Source of the DNA: Aliiroseovarius halocynthiae
Lineage (GTDB): Bacteria; Pseudomonadota; Alphaproteobacteria; Rhodobacterales; Rhodobacteraceae
Direction of reading: 5' to 3'
Assembly: GCF_007004645.1 (NCBI RefSeq)
Contig: NZ_ML660019.1
Coordinates: 265,295-329,294, forward strand
DNA: 64,000 bases
Both the position numbers and the translations under genes were made by a program. Each line of letters opens with the position of its first letter. Positions within the stretch are counted from its first letter, which is position 1. Shown piece after piece: positions 36,033 to 44,366 of the stretch. The notes beneath the pieces were generated by a model, which was not told the origin of the DNA, searched no databases, and saw only the letters and a list, made by a program, of their open reading frames with translations.

Positions 36033-36518
36033 TTAGCTTTCTGGCGGCAGGATGACGCTGTCGATCACATGGATCACACCGTTCGAGGTTTCGATATCTG
36101 CGGTTGTGACGTTGGCACCCTGAACCGTTACGCCCGACATGGTGCCGATTTTCACTTCAGCGCCTTGTACGGTGGCGGCCATCATGCCGTCTGACAGGTC
36201 GCCAGACATCACTTTGCCGGGGACGACGTGATAGGTCAGGATCGACACCAGCCTGTCTTTGTTTTCTGGCATCAAAAGCGTTTCGACAGTGCCCTCTGGC
36301 AGGGCTGCGAAAGCGTCATCCGTGGGGGCGAAGACGGTGAAGGGACCTTCGCCCTTCAGGGTGTCGACCAAGCCTGCGGCCTGTACGGCGGCGACCAGTG
36401 TGGTGAAGCTGCCAGCGCTGACGGCGGTGTCGACGATATCTTTAGAGTGGCCATCCGCGAATGCCGGTGCGGCAAAGGTGGCGGCTGCGGTGATGGCGAT
36501 GAAAGTACGACGAAGCAT
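36033..36518 (-). CDS. Secreted fasciclin-domain protein
   Basis: This 161-residue protein has a signal peptide cut near [10 protein letters not shown] and a single FAS1 domain. The conserved H1 and H2 boxes read [17 protein letters not shown] and [11 protein letters not shown], and the end reads [17 protein letters not shown]1 domains mediate cell-surface adhesion. AAGGAG precedes ATG 36518, which rules out the long upstream frame. A terminator follows. It lies next to the RdhA gene on the same strand but looks unrelated. Confidence 0.92.
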
Positions 36519-36610: not shown

Positions 36611-39600
36611 TCACATGTTCAGCGTGATCTCTCCATTCGGGGTTTTTGCGCGACTTTGGCACAGGATCATTGCGCCTTCGCGCTGGGCGTTGGAGAGAAC
36701 AAAATCTCGGTGCTCGACATCGCCTGACAACACGTCGCATTTGCACACACCACAGATCCCGTCCGAGCATTTTACATCCACATGCAGCCCAGCATTGTTC
36801 AGCGCATCGGCGGCGGTTTGATCGGCTGAAACGTCAATCTTGCGACCGTCTTTCAGGTGCAGGGTGAAGGGGTGGTTTTCATAATCCGGCTGCTCGGGCA
36901 CGCTGAAATATTCCAGATGTCGTGCGGCGTCCGGGATGCCCTGGCGTTCCGCCGCCTGCATCACGGCATCCATATAACGATCCGCCCCGCAGGCATAGAC
37001 ATGCGTTCCATTTGGTGCACGGCTTAGAACGGTATCGAAGTCGGCACGGCTGCCTTCATCCGAGAAATGCAAATGCACGTTGTCCGACCACGGCATTGCG
37101 GCCAGATCGTCCAGATACCCTGCATCTTTCCGGCTGCTGGCTGAGTAATGCAGTGCGAAATCCGCGCCGATGGCATGCAGGCGATGGGCAAAGGCGATCA
37201 TCGGGGTGACGCCAATACCGCCGCCCATAAGAAAGGTCTTGGGCGCGTCTTCAACCAGTTCAAAATGGTTGATGGGCTTCGAAACAAAGACCTTGCGGCC
37301 CTCGGTGAAGATCCGGTGCAGAAGCGCTGAACCACCGCGCCCATCCTCTTCGCGCAGGACGCCGATCTGATAGCGTTTTCGGTCGGCGGGGTCACCGGAC
37401 AGCGAGTATTGCCGCAAGAAATCGGGCGATACCAGCACGTCCAGATGCGCCCCGGCAGTCCATGCGGGAAGCTCTGATCCGTCAAGCGAGGACAGCTCGT
37501 ATTTCGTCACGCCCGGCGTCATCTGCTCGACCTTGGACAGCGACAGCTGCAACACCGGGCTGTCATCGGGCACCACATAGCGATGCACCATCGACAGATC
37601 CCCGCGTGCCTTCCGAGCGCGGTATTCCTTGGCCGAGATCATCGCCTCATAAGCCGCAATTCCAGCCTCGCGATCCATTGGGAACGGGTAGGGGGCGGGC
37701 GGTGGGGCCAAGGGCGCGGGATAGGTCGCAAGGGTCTGGTCCTCGGGTTTCAGGTCAATCTCGCGCTGAAGGTCGCGGCGGTTCACCGGTGCATTGGGCG
37801 CGTGGTATCCGCCATCCGGCCCCAGCTCTAGATCCCACCACCATTTCTTGACCTCATTCAGGCCGCCATTGCCAACAACATCATCCAGTTTGGCCAAGAC
37901 AGGTGCCGCGCCGGGAAGGTTCGAAGCGGCCCAGCGGAACGGGGTCTGTGCGAAAAGGCCCTCCAGATTCCACGGGCAGGTTTTCATGCAACGCCCACAC
38001 ATCGCGCCCCCCGGCTGGGTCACACGATAGGTGGTGCATTTCTGGCTGTCAGATTTCCAGATCTCATAGCCGTTGAACATTTTCTTCGGTCCGGCAGTGA
38101 TCGCGCCTGAAGGACATTCACGTGCGCATTTGTTGCAGCTTTCGCAGAAGCGCTGCAGGCCGAAATCAATTGGTTTGTCATGGGCCAGCGGCATGTCTGT
38201 CGTCACCGCCCCTGACTTCAAACGTGGCCCCAGAAGCGGGTGCAGAATGACCTCGCCGATCCGGCTGATCTCGCCCAACCCAGCCAGCAGCAGAAGTGGT
38301 GGTTGCAACACCGTTCCATCCATCACCGTATGCGCCTTGGCCGAATAGCCGAGGTTGCGAATTTGCTGCGCGATGACGCCGCCGATCAGCGAAAACCGCA
38401 GATAGGCACGCATGGATTGGCTGACGGCGATCCAATCATCACCGGATGCGCCCTCCATCGTTTCAAAGCCCTGATCCACGATCATCGAGATGGCGTTGTC
38501 GTGGGTTGGCACGATTTCGGCCCCGGTGGCGTCGTGGCTGTACCAGACCCAATCCGGGCAGCGGCTGGTGCCAGCCGCGTCGATCCCAAGGAAATAGCTG
38601 GCGGCACGCAGCGCGGCGGCATTGGCTTCTGCGTCCGTCGGTCGCGCACCATTTGCTACGGGTCCGTCCTGCAACGGTGTGAAGGCTCCAAGCGCGCGCC
38701 GTTGTGCATAACTGGGGGCGGATTTGCGCACATACATCCCGCCCGAGGAATGTTTGTGCAAATGCTTGCCCATATCCCCGAACTGCGCACGGGCGAACAT
38801 GTCGGATCGTTTCGGTACGCGGGCGACGTTTTCTTCGTCGATATAGGATGTAGGTTGGTCGACACGTTTCAGACGCTCGAACGGCAGCGGTCCTTGGGCA
38901 TAGTCACGACGTGCATAAGGATCACGGTTCAGACCGGACTTGGTGCTGTCCACGCCCAGTGTCCAACGAAGCCCGGTCAAATTCGGCTGATCGGGCTGGG
39001 GCGCAAGGGGGCGGTCGGGCGTAAGTGCAATATCCGTGGTCACGACGGCAAGGCCGAACTGTTCGCCAACCCACGGCGCTTGCAGGCCGTCCGGGGTCGC
39101 CCAAGCCAGCCCGGCCTGCACAGCAAGCCGCGACATCCACACATCGCTGGCAGCCCCCGTATGGGCCTTTGCGTCAAACCCCAAAAGCCGCAGATAGTTC
39201 GCGATGACGATGGCCGTTTCCGAGGACAGAAGGCAAGCGCGATGGTCCTGCGCGTCCATGATCCAATCCGCACCCGGTTCGTCGGCACGGGGGTCACGGT
39301 GGTGTTCATACAGGAAGACAATCGCGTGGGTGTGATCTGTTACGGGGCGAATTCCGGACGACAGGCTCTCTTTCAACTCGGCCATCAGGGTGTCGATCCC
39401 AGCCGCCAGCGTCCTTACCTCGCGTGTGCCAAGAGCGGTGACCAGATCTTGAATGCCGGGGTTCTCGACCGGTGTTTCGCGCAGGGATGTTTCGTCCAGC
39501 TGCGTGATCCCAACCATCGACGCATCCGAGTAATAGCCAAACGCTTTCAAATGCCGGGAGCGTTCGTCGGGATCCGAAGGGATAGACGAGCGGGTTGGAT

Positions 39601-39841
39601 TAACCTCTCCATCCCGGATCGCGTCCAGCGCCGCCTGATGAGGGGCCATTGCGTTGACAAGGCTTTCGGGTCGGTCGGGCCGGTGAAAGGACAAGTGCGG
39701 GTCGGGCGCAACCTGATCCAGCCCGACCGCTACGTCGCAACGGCGCAGTCGTTCAAGCGGGTAGGGGCCCAGATCTACGGGCCGATGTCGTGTCGAAAAC
39801 AGGCGCATGTCGGTCGTCCAGTTTGCCGGGGCAGTCAGCAT
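36611..39841 (-). CDS. Cytoplasmic reductive dehalogenase fused to oxygenase-type reductase
   Basis: This 1076-residue protein matches the self-sufficient BhbA/NpRdhA class of corrinoid reductive dehalogenases. It has a degenerate RdhA-like half (about 1-300), a second RdhA domain (about 310-560), two ferredoxin sets (C566, C569, C572, C576 and C602, C615, C618, C622), a flavin reductase (RQYS near 810, GGGIGVTP 873-880) and a plant-type 2Fe-2S domain (C1025, C1030, C1033, C1061). No Tat signal and no rdhB are seen, so it is probably cytoplasmic and NAD(P)H-driven. The likely proton-donating tyrosine is Y434 in WVWYSHD. Known members remove halogens from halophenols. A start at M12 (39808) is also possible. 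Confidence 0.88.
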
Positions 39842-39843
39842 GT

Positions 39844-39914
39844 CCCGACTTAAGGTCGGGTGCCATCCTTGGTCCAGCTAAGGCTTTAACGTGTATGGTT
39901 ACCAAAAGCACGTT
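39844..39914. promoter_or_regulatory. Two inverted repeats upstream of the RdhA gene
   Basis: CCCGAC-TTAAG-GTCGGG lies at 39844-39860 and AACGTG/CACGTT arms lie at 39888-39893 and 39909-39914, around a TGGTTACCA palindrome (39896-39904). A weak minus-strand promoter (TTTGCA, 17 bases, CATACA) overlaps the second. These could be operators for the dehalogenase gene. They do not resemble the TetR-promoter palindrome. Confidence 0.35.
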
Positions 39915-39944
39915 TGCAAATGAGGCGCTAGAGTAAAATTGGAT

Positions 39945-40580
39945 TCAATATCCATTCCGAGAGCGAAACCGCTTAACCTCGCGCTTTGTGGGTGATTTCC
40001 CGGTAAATAGTTCAACATATAACGGAACGCGATCGATCCGGCCGATTGGGTCTTCCGTGATCTCCATCGCGATATAGCCGACCTGCGTGTAAAGGATCGC
40101 CATCGTGCGGACCTCGGCATCACCGGGGGGATAGCCAAAGCGCTCGAACATCGACTTGATGGCGGACTTGCGCTGGGCGTCTGCGTGATCAACGCGCCGT
40201 TTAAGCGCGGCATCATGGTCGGCCCAGTTGCGGATCGCACGATCAAGCTGCGCGTCGAACAGGTCTTTCTTGAACCAGCAATCCTGAAGGTTGAACATCG
40301 CCTCGCCGATCGTTTCGGCATAGAGGGCGCATTGCGCGACCAGATTGCCGGTGTTCTTGTCCTCCCACCGTTTGATCATGGCGCCGAGCAACGCCTCGCG
40401 GTCGCGAAAGTGGTGATAGAACCCGGTGCGGGTCAGGCCAAGCCGGTTGGCCAGCGGCATGATTTTCACTCCGTCCACACCAGACGAGATCAGCAATTCA
40501 AGTGCAGCATCAAGCCACATACGTTCCGAAGCGCGAGGGCGGGCCGAGGCGCGGGGGTGGGGCGTGTCGTTTTTGGCCAT
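39945..40580 (-). CDS. TetR-family regulator
   Basis: This 211-residue regulator has an N-terminal helix-turn-helix (about residues 22-70) with LANRLGLTRTGFYHHFRDREALL, the usual TetR recognition region, and an all-helical ligand-binding domain. It is divergent from the MttB-like gene and lies upstream of the RdhA gene on the same strand. Its own promoter carries a palindrome over the -35 box, so autorepression and control of the divergent gene are likely. The predicted transcript start lies only a few bases before the ATG, so the mRNA may be leaderless. The ligand is unknown. Confidence 0.9.
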   Translation of the reverse strand: MAKNDTPHPRASARPRASERMWLDAALELLISSGVDGVKIMPLANRLGLTRTGFYHHFRDREALLGAMIKRWEDKNTGNLVAQCALYAETIGEAMFNLQDCWFKKDLFDAQLDRAIRNWADHDAALKRRVDHADAQRKSAIKSMFERFGYPPGDAEVRTMAILYTQVGYIAMEITEDPIGRIDRVPLYVELFTGKSPTKREVKRFRSRNGY

Positions 40581-40588
40581 AATCGCGC

Positions 40589-40639
40589 ATCATAGGTGAC
40601 TTGACACGTGTGTCAAATCAGATGTCACTTATGTCAAGT
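40589..40639. promoter_or_regulatory. tetR promoter and palindromic operator
   Basis: TTGACAC-GT-GTGTCAA (40601-40616) is a perfect 7-bp palindrome. On the minus strand its TTGACA is the -35 box and TATGAT (40589-40594) the -10 box, with 16-base spacing. Further TGTCA elements at 40623-40627 and 40632-40636 face the MttB-like gene. The plan suits a TetR repressor controlling both directions. Confidence 0.7.
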
Positions 40640-40666
40640 AAGCGACTCATGACAAGGGAGGATGTG

Positions 40667-42226
40667 ATGAGCGAGCCAACAACAGCGCGGCGACGCAGCC
40701 GTGGAAGGCGGCAGGCGCGCGATGGATCGCCGGGCCAAAATCCGCATTTGGAGCGGCCCTATATCAAGCGCGGCATTCCCACCTATGACATCCTTGGCGA
40801 AGATGCGCTCGTGCAGATCGAAGCCACAGCCGACCGTATTCTGGCCGAGATCGGCATTGAATTTCGCGACGATCCCGAAACGGTCGAGATGTTCCGCAAG
40901 GCCGGTGGCACGGTCACGCCGCTGGATGATACGCGCTGGAACATCAAGTTCGCACCGGGCATGATCCGCGAGATCTTGCAGACGGCTCCGCCCGTCTTCA
41001 CCCAGCACGCCCGTAACCCCGCCAACACTGTTCAGATCGGCGGGGATAACGTGGTCTTTGCGCCATCTTATGGCAGCCCGTTTGTGATGGATTTGGACAA
41101 GGGGCGCCGCTATGGCACGCTTGAGGACTTCCAGAACTTTGTGAAGCTGGGGCAGGCCAGCCCGTGGTTGCACCATTCTGGCGGGACGGTGTGCGAGCCG
41201 ACGGATGTTCCCGTGAACAAGCGCCATCTTGATATGGTCTATGCCCACATGCGCTATTCCGACCGGCCGTTTCTTGGCTCGGTCACTGCGCCAGAGCGTG
41301 CCGCCGACAGTGTCGAGATGTGCCGGGTGTTGTTTGGTGCCGATTTCGTCGATCAGAACTGTGTCATTATGGGGAACTTCAATACCACCAGCCCGTTGGT
41401 GTTGGACGGGATCACAACGCAGGGCATTCGCGAATATGCACGTGCGGGGCAGGGGTCAATCCACCTGCCGTTCCTGCTGGGCGGAGCGGTGTCCCCCCTG
41501 ACCATGGCGGGATCCGTAGCGCAATGTCTGGCGGAAAGCATGGTGTCTTGCGCCGTTGCACAGCTAGAGCACCCCGGCGCGCCGGTTGTGCTGGCCAGCT
41601 TCCTCAGCTCCATGTCGTTGCGGTCGGGGTCGCCTACATTTGGCACGGCGGAACCTGCGGTGGGCAGTCTTGTTTACGGCCAATTGGCTCGGCGGTTGAA
41701 CCTGCCATTGCGCTGCGCGGGAAACTTCTCGACCTCGAAACTTCCCGACGCGCAGGCGATGCAGCAAGCGATGATGTCGATGATGTCTGCGGTGCAGTGC
41801 GGAGCGAATTACCTGCTGCATTCTGCCGGGTTCCTCGATGGGCTTCTGTCTATGTCCTACGAGAAATTTATGCTGGATCTGGATCTGTGTGGTGCGCTGC
41901 ATTCCTATTGCGGCGGGGTGATCGTGAACGAGGACACGCTGGGCTTTGATGCCTTGGCCGAGCAGGGACCGGGCGAGCATCTGTTTTCGACCGCGCATAC
42001 GATGCGCCACTATAAAACAGCCTATTACGACAGCGCGCTGGACGACAATCAACCGTGGGAGACATGGGACGAGCAAGGCGAGATTGACATGGCGGCCCGT
42101 GCGAACCAACGCTGGAAAGCGCAGCTTGCGGCCTATGAGGCACCAGAAATGGATCCTGCGATAGACGAGGCGCTGAAGGACTTCGTTGCACGCAAGAAAG
42201 CCTTGATGGAAGACGCTTGGTACTGA
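40667..42226 (+). CDS. MttB-like trimethylamine methyltransferase family protein
   Basis: This 519-residue protein belongs to the MttB superfamily, with ERPYIKRGIPTYDIL at the start and a long TIM-barrel body. MttB-type enzymes move a methyl group from a methylated amine to a corrinoid protein. The frame has no internal TAG, so it is the non-pyrrolysine type, like MtgB-type betaine methyltransferases. GGGAGG precedes ATG 40667, and the frame upstream is the operator. No corrinoid (MttC-like) or RamA gene is seen here. The TMADH-like gene follows. The substrate is not predictable. Confidence 0.85.
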   Translation: MSEPTTARRRSRGRRQARDGSPGQNPHLERPYIKRGIPTYDILGEDALVQIEATADRILAEIGIEFRDDPETVEMFRKAGGTVTPLDDTRWNIKFAPGMIREILQTAPPVFTQHARNPANTVQIGGDNVVFAPSYGSPFVMDLDKGRRYGTLEDFQNFVKLGQASPWLHHSGGTVCEPTDVPVNKRHLDMVYAHMRYSDRPFLGSVTAPERAADSVEMCRVLFGADFVDQNCVIMGNFNTTSPLVLDGITTQGIREYARAGQGSIHLPFLLGGAVSPLTMAGSVAQCLAESMVSCAVAQLEHPGAPVVLASFLSSMSLRSGSPTFGTAEPAVGSLVYGQLARRLNLPLRCAGNFSTSKLPDAQAMQQAMMSMMSAVQCGANYLLHSAGFLDGLLSMSYEKFMLDLDLCGALHSYCGGVIVNEDTLGFDALAEQGPGEHLFSTAHTMRHYKTAYYDSALDDNQPWETWDEQGEIDMAARANQRWKAQLAAYEAPEMDPAIDEALKDFVARKKALMEDAWY

Positions 42227-42233
42227 GGGCGGT

Positions 42234-42287
42234 GGGGCTTCGCCCCCGCGTCTGCGACGCTCCCCCAGGATATTTGAGACAAGAAAA
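42234..42287. repeat. Dispersed intergenic motif, copy B
   Basis: CCCCCAGGATATTTGAGACAAGAAAA (42262-42287) is the reverse complement of the motif at 12306-12332 with few changes. A GGGGC-TTC-GCCCC hairpin lies at 42234-42246. It sits between the MttB-like and TMADH-like genes. Confidence 0.75.
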
Positions 42288-42320
42288 TGTGGGCGAAACG
42301 CCCAAAGCCGAGAAGGATGG

Positions 42321-44366
42321 ATGATGTCGAACGATCCACTTTTGCAGCCATATCAATTGGGGCATCTGACACTGAGAAACCGGATTATGACAACGAGCCA
42401 TGAACCGGCCTATCCCGAGGATGGGATGCCGAAGGAGCGTTATGCAGCCTATCACGCTGAACGGGCCAAGGCAGGTGTAGCGATGACCATGACCGCGGGA
42501 TCAGCGGCGGTGTCGAAAGACAGCCCGCCGGTCTTCAACAACATCCTTGCCTATAAGGACGAGGTGGTTCCGTGGATCAAGAACCTGACCGATGCGGTGC
42601 ACGAACATGGCGCGGCCTGCATGATCCAGTTGACCCATCTGGGGCGGCGGACGGGGTGGAACAAGGGCGACTGGTTGCCGCCGGTCTGTTCAACGCCGCA
42701 CCGTGAACCTGCCCACCGCGCCTTCCCCAAAATGGCCGAGGACTGGGATATCTCGCGGATCATCTCGGACTTCGCAGACTCTGCCGAGCGGATGAAAGAA
42801 GGTGGCATGGATGGGGTCGAGGTGATGACCCATGGGCATCTTCTGGATCAGTTCATCTCGCCTCTGACCAACCGGTTGGACGGTCCGTATGGAGGAGACC
42901 TTGCCGGGCGGATGAAGCTGACGATGGATATCATCGAGGCTGTGCGGGCACGCGTGGGTCGCGCGTTCATTGTAGGGGTGCGTTTTGCCCCGGACGAGGT
43001 CGAAACCGGCGGAATCGATCCCGAAATGGGGCTGGAAATTGCCCGGATGCTGCGCGACTGCGGGCATGTGGACTATCTGAACATCAACCGGGGGCGCATT
43101 CATACGGACCCCGCGATGACGGACATGATTCCTATTCAGGGTGCGCCGGCGTCTCCTCATTTGGATTTCGCGGGGCGGGTTCGCAAAGAGATCGGCATGC
43201 CCACCTTTCATGCGGCCCGCATTCCTGATGTGGCAACTGCGCGCCACGCGGTCTCCTCGGGGCAGTTGGATATGGTCGGCATGACGCGCGCGCATATGGC
43301 CGATCCGCATATCGTGAAGAAAATCATCGAAGGGCGCGAAGAAGATATTCGCCCCTGTGTCGGTGCGACCTACTGTCTGGACCGGATCTATCAGGCGGGG
43401 GATGCGCTGTGTGTCCATAACGCCGCCACTGGGCGCGAGCTGACCATGCCGCACGAGATCGCCTCAGCGGCCACACCCCGCAAGGTGGTGATCGTGGGCG
43501 CTGGGCCGGGGGGGCTTGAAGCCGCGCGGGTTGCTGCCGAGCGTGGTCATGAGGTGACCGTCTTCGAGGCGCAACCCGATCCCGGTGGCCAGGTGCGTCT
43601 AACCGCGCAGACCCCGCGTCGACGCGAGATGATCGGCATCATCGACTGGCGCATGGCGCAATGTGCGGCGCGTGATGTCACCTTCCATTTCAACACATGG
43701 GCCGAGGCCTCGGACGTCACCGTCCTGAACCCAGATGTTGTGATCGTCGCCACTGGCGGTCTGCCAAATCTCGAGCTGTTCGAGACCACGGGCGAACAGG
43801 AACTGGCCGTCAGTGCGTGGGACGTGATCGCGGGTGACGTGAAATGCGCGGGAGATGTACTGATCTATGATGAAAGCGGCGATCATCCGGCGCTGCAGGC
43901 CGCCGAGATCGCTGCCGAGTCGGGTGCAAATGTCGAGGTGATGACACCGGATCGCGTCTTTGCCCCCGACATCATGGCGATGAACCTTGTGCCATACATG
44001 CGCTCCCTTCAGCCCAAAGGCGTGCGGTTCACCGTGACCGAGCGCCTGAAGGATATTCAGCGTGATGGCAATCGCCTGACGGTTACTTTGGGCACGGATT
44101 ATTCCGAGTTCACCCGCGAAGCGACCTATGATCAGGTGGTGGTGAACTATGGCACGATGCCGATGGCTGATCTGTATTTTGACCTGAAAGAGCTGTCATC
44201 AAACCGGGGTGAAGTGGATCATGACGCACTGATCGAGGGCCGCCCGCAGACCATCCGCTCCAATCCCGACGGAGGGTTCCAGCTGTTCCGCATCGGAGAC
44301 GCCGTGACCGCACGCAATACGCATGCCGCCATCTATGACGCGCTTCGCTTGGTGAAAGACTTGTAG
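42321..44366 (+). CDS. TMADH/DgcA-like flavoprotein
   Basis: This 681-residue protein has an OYE-type FMN barrel (about 1-345), an Fe-S segment and a C-terminal FAD/NAD-binding half (GAGPGG near 393-398). This is the layout of trimethylamine dehydrogenase, 2,4-dienoyl-CoA reductase, the dimethylglycine protein DgcA and stachydrine demethylases. The cluster region reads CVGATYC...C: C346, C352 and C364 are present, but position 349 is alanine where a cysteine is usual. An oxidative N-demethylation role is likely by family and context. AAGGATGG precedes two adjacent ATG codons. Confidence 0.87.
   Translation: MMSNDPLLQPYQLGHLTLRNRIMTTSHEPAYPEDGMPKERYAAYHAERAKAGVAMTMTAGSAAVSKDSPPVFNNILAYKDEVVPWIKNLTDAVHEHGAACMIQLTHLGRRTGWNKGDWLPPVCSTPHREPAHRAFPKMAEDWDISRIISDFADSAERMKEGGMDGVEVMTHGHLLDQFISPLTNRLDGPYGGDLAGRMKLTMDIIEAVRARVGRAFIVGVRFAPDEVETGGIDPEMGLEIARMLRDCGHVDYLNINRGRIHTDPAMTDMIPIQGAPASPHLDFAGRVRKEIGMPTFHAARIPDVATARHAVSSGQLDMVGMTRAHMADPHIVKKIIEGREEDIRPCVGATYCLDRIYQAGDALCVHNAATGRELTMPHEIASAATPRKVVIVGAGPGGLEAARVAAERGHEVTVFEAQPDPGGQVRLTAQTPRRREMIGIIDWRMAQCAARDVTFHFNTWAEASDVTVLNPDVVIVATGGLPNLELFETTGEQELAVSAWDVIAGDVKCAGDVLIYDESGDHPALQAAEIAAESGANVEVMTPDRVFAPDIMAMNLVPYMRSLQPKGVRFTVTERLKDIQRDGNRLTVTLGTDYSEFTREATYDQVVVNYGTMPMADLYFDLKELSSNRGEVDHDALIEGRPQTIRSNPDGGFQLFRIGDAVTARNTHAAIYDALRLVKDL

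What the first reader, a model, noticed from the sequence alone, without database searches (positions are those of the whole stretch)
36611..39841. Self-sufficient reductive dehalogenase fusion in a marine alphaproteobacterium
Seen: one 1076-residue frame joins two RdhA-like parts, eight cysteines in two ferredoxin motifs, a flavin reductase domain and a plant-type 2Fe-2S domain. Established: this architecture is known for BhbA and NpRdhA, cytoplasmic NAD(P)H-driven corrinoid dehalogenases. Inferred: this strain may dehalogenate marine halophenols or a related compound.
Basis: partly seen in the sequence, partly recalled or inferred. Interest (0 to 1): 0.8.

Follow-up and report, generated by a model that had tools for sequence, protein, structure and literature searches.

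The report
Self-powered marine bromophenol dehalogenase
This gene encodes a one-piece vitamin B12 enzyme that most likely strips bromine or iodine from phenols using the cell's own NADPH; the enzyme type is already known, but a sulfate-removing enzyme encoded beside it in relatives hints at what it acts on in the sea.

Summary
The frame is real, on the minus strand (36611-39841; likely start 39808). It is a catabolic reductive dehalogenase fused to a phthalate-dioxygenase-type reductase. It matches NpRdhA by sequence (E 3.6e-161) and predicted fold (TM about 0.88). All eight 4Fe-4S cysteines are present, and so is the catalytic trio: Y480, K542, R606, equal to NpRdhA Y426, K488, R552. The same architecture is characterised in Jhaorihella thermophila as an NADPH-driven debrominase and deiodinase of ortho-halophenols. 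So this is a new member of a known kind, in Aliiroseovarius. It is widespread: 114 of 295 one-per-genus genomes of the family and 20 of 21 of the genus. The neighbouring TetR, MttB and OYE genes are probably a separate cassette. Least expected: in 9 of 17 examined genus loci rdhA follows an arylsulfatase-like gene, stop and start within 2 bases. One distant lineage has the same pair (10 bases apart), and two more have the gene within 3 kb. This suggests sulfated bromophenols as natural substrates. The window itself has no such sulfatase. Activity and substrate are inferred.

The parts
36611..39808 (-). rdhA coding sequence, probable start M12 to stop (1065 aa). The first-stage frame begins 33 bases earlier, at 39841.
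38852..39808 (-). N-terminal vestigial RdhA-like half (about residues 12-330). Least conserved part: mean majority-residue share 0.715.
37802..38851 (-). functional RdhA half (about residues 331-680), corrinoid and [4Fe-4S] part. Most conserved: majority-residue share 0.884 over residues 331-640.
38402..38404 (-). catalytic Tyr480 codon (NpRdhA Y426)
   Evidence: role from PMC7565698 (passages)
38216..38218 (-). Lys542 codon (NpRdhA K488)
38024..38026 (-). Arg606 codon (NpRdhA R552)
38114..38146 (-). first [4Fe-4S] motif C566-x2-C-x2-C-x3-C576
   Evidence: 124 of 124
37976..38038 (-). second [4Fe-4S] motif C602-x12-C615-x2-C618-x3-C622
   Evidence: 124 of 124
36896..37558 (-). flavin and NAD(P)H domains of a phthalate-dioxygenase-reductase-type module (residues 762-982)
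36641..36874 (-). plant-type [2Fe-2S] domain (residues 990-1067), C1025, C1030, C1033, C1061
   Evidence: PF00111 E 1.2e-11
39809..39944 (-). gap between rdhA and tetR. In 9 of 17 other Aliiroseovarius loci a sulfatase-family gene abuts rdhA on this side (one of the nine has an internal deletion); no significant match to it is left in the window.

Best explanation
[quoted passage not shown] NAD(P)H reduces a flavin (FMN, by analogy with JtRdhA). Electrons pass through the C-terminal [2Fe-2S] cluster and the two [4Fe-4S] clusters to cobalamin in the functional RdhA half. The ortho-halogen of a phenol binds the cobalt, Lys542, Arg606 and Ser476 hold the phenol OH, and Tyr480 gives the proton as the C-Br or C-I bond is cut. 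Shown here: the frame, its domains, the cluster ligands, the catalytic residues, the fold match, purifying selection, and a CobN cobaltochelatase gene in the same genome. Inferred from characterised relatives: cofactors, electron path and bromo/iodo-phenol preference. Inferred more weakly: the natural substrates are para-substituted ortho-bromophenols, in relatives perhaps met as sulfate esters, whose dehalogenated products could enter the hpaEDGH-like or homogentisate routes of this genome.
For: NpRdhA by sequence, E 3.6e-161, and by predicted fold, TM about 0.88 by target length, model pLDDT 78.4 and pTM 0.77. TIGR02486 above its cut-off. Y480, K542, R606, S476, M477 and F349 are identical to NpRdhA in 123 of 123 rows; eight cluster cysteines in 124 of 124. 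The reductase module matches the self-sufficient P450 fusions and phthalate dioxygenase reductase. dN/dS 0.06-0.11. JtRdhA, same architecture, is an NADPH-dependent debrominase and deiodinase that also works in air; its best substrates are 3,5-dibromo-4-hydroxybenzoate (100%) and 3-bromo-4-hydroxyphenylacetate (99.3%), with 2,6-dibromophenol at 6.8% (PMC10463259). Own genome has CobN (TIGR02257 1472 bits against a cut-off of 822), hpaE, hpaD, an hpaG-like gene and hpaH and hmgA-maiA-fahA.
Against: No activity, cofactor or expression data for this protein. The Pfam dehalogenase family PF13486 does not match in this genome (its controls did not ring either, so that says little). The fold model is weak (pLDDT under 50) at residues 12-14, 512-520, 522-532, 595-597 and 703-722 (numbering plus 11), partly within the catalytic half. 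No partner gene is conserved across genera. The genome lacks PF11794 (HpaB) and PF00775 (intradiol dioxygenase) at E 0.001, so the onward route for the product is incomplete on paper.
Confidence: 0.9

Rival explanations
1. Same enzyme, other role: it acts mainly as a detoxifier, removing bromine from algal or animal bromophenols to lower their toxicity, with no growth benefit. (This rivals the catabolic role, not the chemistry.)
For: It stands alone in most of the 40 genus representatives looked at, with no conserved catabolic operon. No HpaB and no intradiol dioxygenase in the own genome. Nine of 114 rdhA-positive genera have neither HgmA nor intradiol dioxygenase.
Against: Own genome has hpaEDGH-like genes and a complete hmgA-maiA-fahA set. 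HgmA is present in 101 of 114 rdhA-positive against 100 of 181 rdhA-negative genus representatives (not corrected for kinship).
Confidence: 0.4
2. It serves the neighbouring TetR-MttB-OYE genes, for example in corrinoid-linked methylamine or betaine metabolism, and not halophenols.
For: Direct neighbours in the window; MttB is a corrinoid-protein methyltransferase family. The block lies upstream of rdhA in 11 of 17 genus loci.
Against: In 4 of 17 genus loci (L087, L088, L089, L092) tetR, mttB and OYE are missing together while rdhA stays. The catalytic residues of a halophenol reductase are all kept.
Confidence: 0.04
3. The active site has moved to another reductive reaction (not dehalogenation), as in the related epoxyqueuosine reductases.
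For: Four pocket positions differ from NpRdhA and are shared by most of the marine clade: F290 to M, F310 to Y, A419 to V, N452 to V.
Against: BhbA also differs from NpRdhA at three of these four positions (S, S and A at 310, 419 and 452), and JtRdhA is a proven debrominase; Y, K, R and S of the catalytic site never vary in the alignment. QueG scores only 26 bits.
Confidence: 0.05

Closest known systems
JtRdhA, self-sufficient reductive dehalogenase of Jhaorihella thermophila (PMC10463259)
   Same: Same order of parts: vestigial RdhA half, functional RdhA half with two [4Fe-4S], reductase module; no TAT signal; Y, K, R trio; marine bacterium.
   Different: Its sequence was not obtained here, so identity to the window protein was not measured. 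Activity is measured for JtRdhA, not for the window protein.
BhbA of Comamonas sp. 7D-2, plasmid pBHB
   Same: Full-length fusion, 49.4% identical over 1058 aligned columns, catalytic trio and cluster cysteines.
   Different: BhbA sits with protocatechuate 4,5-dioxygenase and a tricarboxylate-transporter binding-protein gene on a conjugative plasmid. Pocket positions 290, 310, 419 and 452 are F, S, S, A in BhbA and M, Y, V, V here.
NpRdhA of Nitratireductor pacificus pht-3B (PDB 4RAS, 6ZXU)
   Same: Closest solved structure; duplicated RdhA fold and catalytic trio.
   Different: No reductase module; 44% identical over 671 aligned columns.
SpAS2 arylsulfatase of Silicibacter pomeroyi (PDB 4UPL; PMC12421950, passages)
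   Same: Closest solved relative (E 9.7e-235) of the sulfatase-family protein encoded next to rdhA in other Aliiroseovarius (query from L087).
   Different: Not present in the window; the substrate of the relatives' protein is unknown.

Membership tests
Reductive dehalogenase (TIGR02486) | Score above the curated cut-off | tested here: met
   213.1 bits against 160.35
Reductive dehalogenase (TIGR02486) | Two [4Fe-4S] clusters: eight Cys | tested here: met
   124 of 124 rows
Reductive dehalogenase (TIGR02486) | Catalytic Tyr, Lys and Arg | tested here: met
   Y480, K542, R606; 123 of 123 rows against NpRdhA
Reductive dehalogenase (TIGR02486) | Binds cobalamin | not testable with these tools
   Fold match to NpRdhA only; contact residues not mapped singly
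Self-sufficient catabolic RdhA (BhbA/JtRdhA) | No TAT signal peptide | tested here: met
   By eye only: the N-terminus from M12 aligns with the NpRdhA start and shows no RRxFxK leader
Self-sufficient catabolic RdhA (BhbA/JtRdhA) | Vestigial duplication of the corrinoid domain | tested here: met
   Residues 11-117 and 169-743 align with NpRdhA, which has both halves; fold match over about 745-750 columns
Self-sufficient catabolic RdhA (BhbA/JtRdhA) | C-terminal phthalate-dioxygenase-reductase module with [2Fe-2S] | tested here: met
   Residues about 762-1067; four Cys in 123 of 123 rows other than NpRdhA
Self-sufficient catabolic RdhA (BhbA/JtRdhA) | NAD(P)H-dependent dehalogenation of ortho-halophenols | not testable with these tools
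   Needs an enzyme assay
Respiratory RdhA | TAT signal peptide | tested here: not met
   By eye
Respiratory RdhA | Membrane anchor gene rdhB beside rdhA | tested here: inconclusive
   No anchor family among the larger neighbours scanned; small frames of rdhB size were not scanned

The most novel reading that the evidence does not exclude
In marine Rhodobacteraceae this enzyme is the second step of a two-step pathway for sulfated bromophenols. An SpAS2-like arylsulfatase, made from a gene coupled to rdhA in the ancestral Aliiroseovarius locus and in at least one distant lineage, cleaves the sulfate ester; the freed ortho-bromophenol is then reductively debrominated with NADPH and passed to the homoprotocatechuate or homogentisate route. 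The window's lineage has lost the coupled sulfatase and would depend on free bromophenols or on a sulfatase elsewhere.
Probability: 0.3. Interest if true: 0.6.

Novelty: new member of a known kind. Interest (0 to 1): 0.4.

Why it matters
Aerobic B12-dependent debromination is known from a few enzymes, tested mostly on pollutants and commercial compounds. Here the fused enzyme is a common gene in the family: by my count, 109 of 295 genus representatives carry a near-full-length copy. A natural bromine- or iodine-cycling role is therefore likely. The sulfatase coupling seen in relatives offers a concrete, testable natural substrate class (sulfated bromophenols of algae) for marine enzymes whose natural substrates were not named in the parts of the papers I read.

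Tried and rejected
TetR (39945-40580) as the dehalogenase regulator: rejected as unlikely, because tetR is missing together with mttB and OYE in 4 of 17 genus loci while rdhA stays.

A conserved catabolic operon: not found. Across 40 genus representatives no neighbour family occurs in more than 5 of 80 upstream or 3 of 80 downstream neighbours. Gene calls were a simple longest-frame rule, so small genes may be missed; the table left out L027.

Two genomes with rdhA in two pieces (G099, G269) looked like natural splits between the RdhA halves. The pieces are out of frame at the break, so they look like frameshifts.

rdhA close to hmgA was seen in one locus (G294, L188). By my rough estimate one case is about what chance would give, so no weight is put on it.

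The co-occurrence with HgmA (odds ratio 6.3, p 8e-10) is not corrected for kinship and may only mark the roseobacter branch. Within genomes with PF00775 it is 87 of 91 against 81 of 127; within those without, 14 of 23 against 19 of 54 (p 0.046). With PF00775 itself the association is weak (91 of 114 against 127 of 181, p 0.077).

A scan of viral contigs for rdhA (query from L101) gave no relative. For the same reason no count of that sulfatase in whole genomes was made, so the chance that it lies near rdhA by accident in the three lineages outside Aliiroseovarius is not known.

Rows dropped: L043 from the protein set (no start found near the expected place); identical sequences before the 124-row alignment.

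Full report
What is there. The frame at 36611-39841 is on the minus strand, 1076 codons without a stop. Homologues begin at or within a few codons of M12, and none of the six closest congeners has a start codon at the place of the window's first ATG, so the start is probably 39808. Residues 11-117 and 169-743 match NpRdhA (E 3.6e-161), and residues about 762-1067 match the reductase part of self-sufficient P450s and phthalate dioxygenase reductase. NCBIfam model TIGR02486 scores 213 bits against a cut-off of 160. An AlphaFold model from 50 aligned relatives (pLDDT 78.4, pTM 0.77) has NpRdhA chains as its first 14 Foldseek hits (TM 0.87-0.89 by target length), followed by the P450 fusions and phthalate dioxygenase reductase.

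Key residues. In an alignment of 124 distinct sequences (the window, 118 from fetched loci, BhbA, three more plasmid-borne fusions, and NpRdhA), NpRdhA Y426, K488, R552, S422, M423 and F291 correspond to Y480, K542, R606, S476, M477 and F349, identical in 123 of 123 other rows. The eight [4Fe-4S] cysteines are present in 124 of 124, and the four [2Fe-2S] cysteines in all but NpRdhA. The roles of these residues come from PMC7565698 (passages). Other pocket positions separate the marine clade from both NpRdhA and BhbA: 290 is M in 113 of 123 rows, 310 is Y in 117, 419 is V in 112, 452 is V in 120. A419M in NpRdhA was made to favour mono-halogenated substrates, so V473 may matter for substrate choice; this is inference.

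Selection. Against nine congeners dN/dS is 0.06-0.11 over the whole gene and 0.03-0.08 over residues 400-760 (one pair had saturated dS in one segment). The catalytic half is the most conserved part (mean majority-residue share 0.884, against 0.715 for the vestigial half and 0.79 for the reductase).

Who has it. Named relatives place the window's genus as Aliiroseovarius (up to 91% identity; 320 of 323 candidate stretches encode a relative, the best 80 kept). In the genus 20 of 21 genomes have it. In the family, one genome per genus, 114 of 295 match with the RdhA part. By my count, 109 of these have a near-full-length fusion (one with a stop codon inside); the other five are partial or fragmented (G102, G096), frameshifted (G099, G269) or lack the reductase (G033). 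In the class 31 of 385 genomes match, of which 9 are fusions by my count (five of the nine are of this family). Eight plasmids in PLSDB hold a match over at least 80% of the query, among them pBHB with BhbA.

Neighbours. Within the genus rdhA keeps its place beside a histidine kinase gene in 16 of 17 loci examined (17 of the 20 genomes with a hit were fetched; left out were the window's own and two with partial matches). A block of tetR, mttB and an OYE-family gene lies upstream in 11 of 17; in 4 (L087, L088, L089, L092) the whole block is missing and rdhA remains, and in 2 (L094, L096) none of the three was seen. The block is therefore probably independent of rdhA. Across 40 genus representatives no neighbour family recurs strongly: LysR 5, MarR 5, DAO 5 and short-chain dehydrogenases 4 of 80 upstream neighbours.

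The sulfatase. In 9 of the 17 genus loci a gene ends within 2 bases of the rdhA start codon. It encodes a sulfatase-family protein of about 550 residues; in one locus (L088) it has an internal deletion. Its closest solved relative is PDB 4UPL (E 9.7e-235), named as SpAS2 in PMC12421950 (passages); that enzyme's listed value for p-nitrophenyl sulfate is 2.1e5 (kcat/KM, units not shown in the passages), far above its phosphate and phosphonate values. The active-site motif reads CGASR or CGSSR, where the Cys would become formylglycine (recalled knowledge). Of 144 loci searched, 19 have a hit. Fifteen are Aliiroseovarius loci, six of them second copies of the same genome. The others are L134 (same strand, 10 bases before rdhA, 66% identity; PF00884 Sulfatase), L049 (same strand, 2.9 kb, 66%, with genes for an NMT1-type ABC transporter between), L037 (opposite strand, 1.6 kb, 64%) and L060 (29%, 4.2 kb, probably unrelated in function). 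On the RdhA tree L134, L037 and L049 sit far from Aliiroseovarius and from each other, and the coupled state is spread over both halves of the genus, as expected if it was ancestral there and lost in the window's clade and in two single lineages (FastTree, a quick method). The window has no significant match to it (best E 0.034, not near rdhA). Results against weight: 8 of 17 genus loci lack it, and nearly all other genera looked at have no such gene within about 8 kb of rdhA. A literature search for arylsulfatase with reductive dehalogenase listed one paper, on calf diarrhoea; searches around bromophenol sulfate with sulfatase and lanosol with debromination showed no such link in the rows listed (10 of 290, 2 of 2). 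[quoted passage not shown]

Metabolic setting. The own genome has CobN, hmgA-maiA-fahA and hpaE, hpaD, an hpaG-like gene (below its curated cut-off) and hpaH in a row, but no PF00775 intradiol dioxygenase and no PF11794 HpaB. Across the family HgmA is found in 101 of 114 rdhA-positive and 100 of 181 rdhA-negative genus representatives, an association that is not corrected for kinship. JtRdhA works nearly as well on 3-bromo-4-hydroxyphenylacetate as on its best substrate, and poorly on 2,6-dibromophenol, which fits acids of the hydroxyphenylacetate type.

What is known. The architecture and its chemistry are in print: JtRdhA (PMC10463259; parts 1 and 2 of 7 and passages read) and BhbA as cited there. 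A catabolic reductive dehalogenase from a marine Roseobacter, without mention of a reductase fusion in what I saw, was reported in 2026 (PMC13101508; part 1 of 7 and passages); it was highly oxygen-sensitive, unlike JtRdhA. The 2023 paper lists RdhAs of Ruegeria pomeroyi and Tropicibacter in its tree, so presence in roseobacters is not new. No paper in the library holds both dehalogenase and Aliiroseovarius.

Verdict. A new member of a known kind, well supported as an NADPH-driven reductive dehalogenase. The natural substrate is open. The coupling to an arylsulfatase-like gene in relatives is the part a specialist would not expect, and it can be tested directly.

Noticed in passing
L087:11529-13184 (-) and matching places in L086, L088, L091-L096; L134:6278-7984 (+): SpAS2-like sulfatase gene abutting rdhA (stop within 2 bases of the rdhA start; 10 bases in L134).
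   Followed up: partly
window 39945-44366: tetR, mttB (no in-frame TAG, so probably not a pyrrolysine enzyme) and an OYE/FadH-type gene form a block that is absent as a whole from four congeners.
   Followed up: partly
L049:11780-14452: An ABC transporter with an NMT1-type binding protein lies between rdhA and the sulfatase gene; it may import aryl sulfates.
   Followed up: no
L182 (G099) and L183 (G269): Two genomes carry rdhA with a frameshift near the middle; decaying genes or sequencing errors.
   Followed up: partly
L188:8333-13471: In one genome (G294) rdhA, a MarR gene and hmgA lie side by side.
   Followed up: partly
L025, L036, L044, L045, L056: A cluster of fumarylacetoacetate-hydrolase-type genes (confirmed by Pfam in L025 and L036 only) lies within about 10 kb of rdhA in five genus representatives; in L025 it is part of a gentisate-like set (cupin, FAA hydrolase, GST).
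   Followed up: partly
L179 (Jannaschia sp. M317, 60-kb plasmid) and L187 (Aminobacter plasmid): Fused rdhA on plasmids, each with a MarR gene next to it.
   Followed up: no
window 36033-36518 (-): Downstream of rdhA on the same strand is a fasciclin-domain protein gene with a signal-like N-terminus (PF02469 E 3.6e-40).
   Followed up: no
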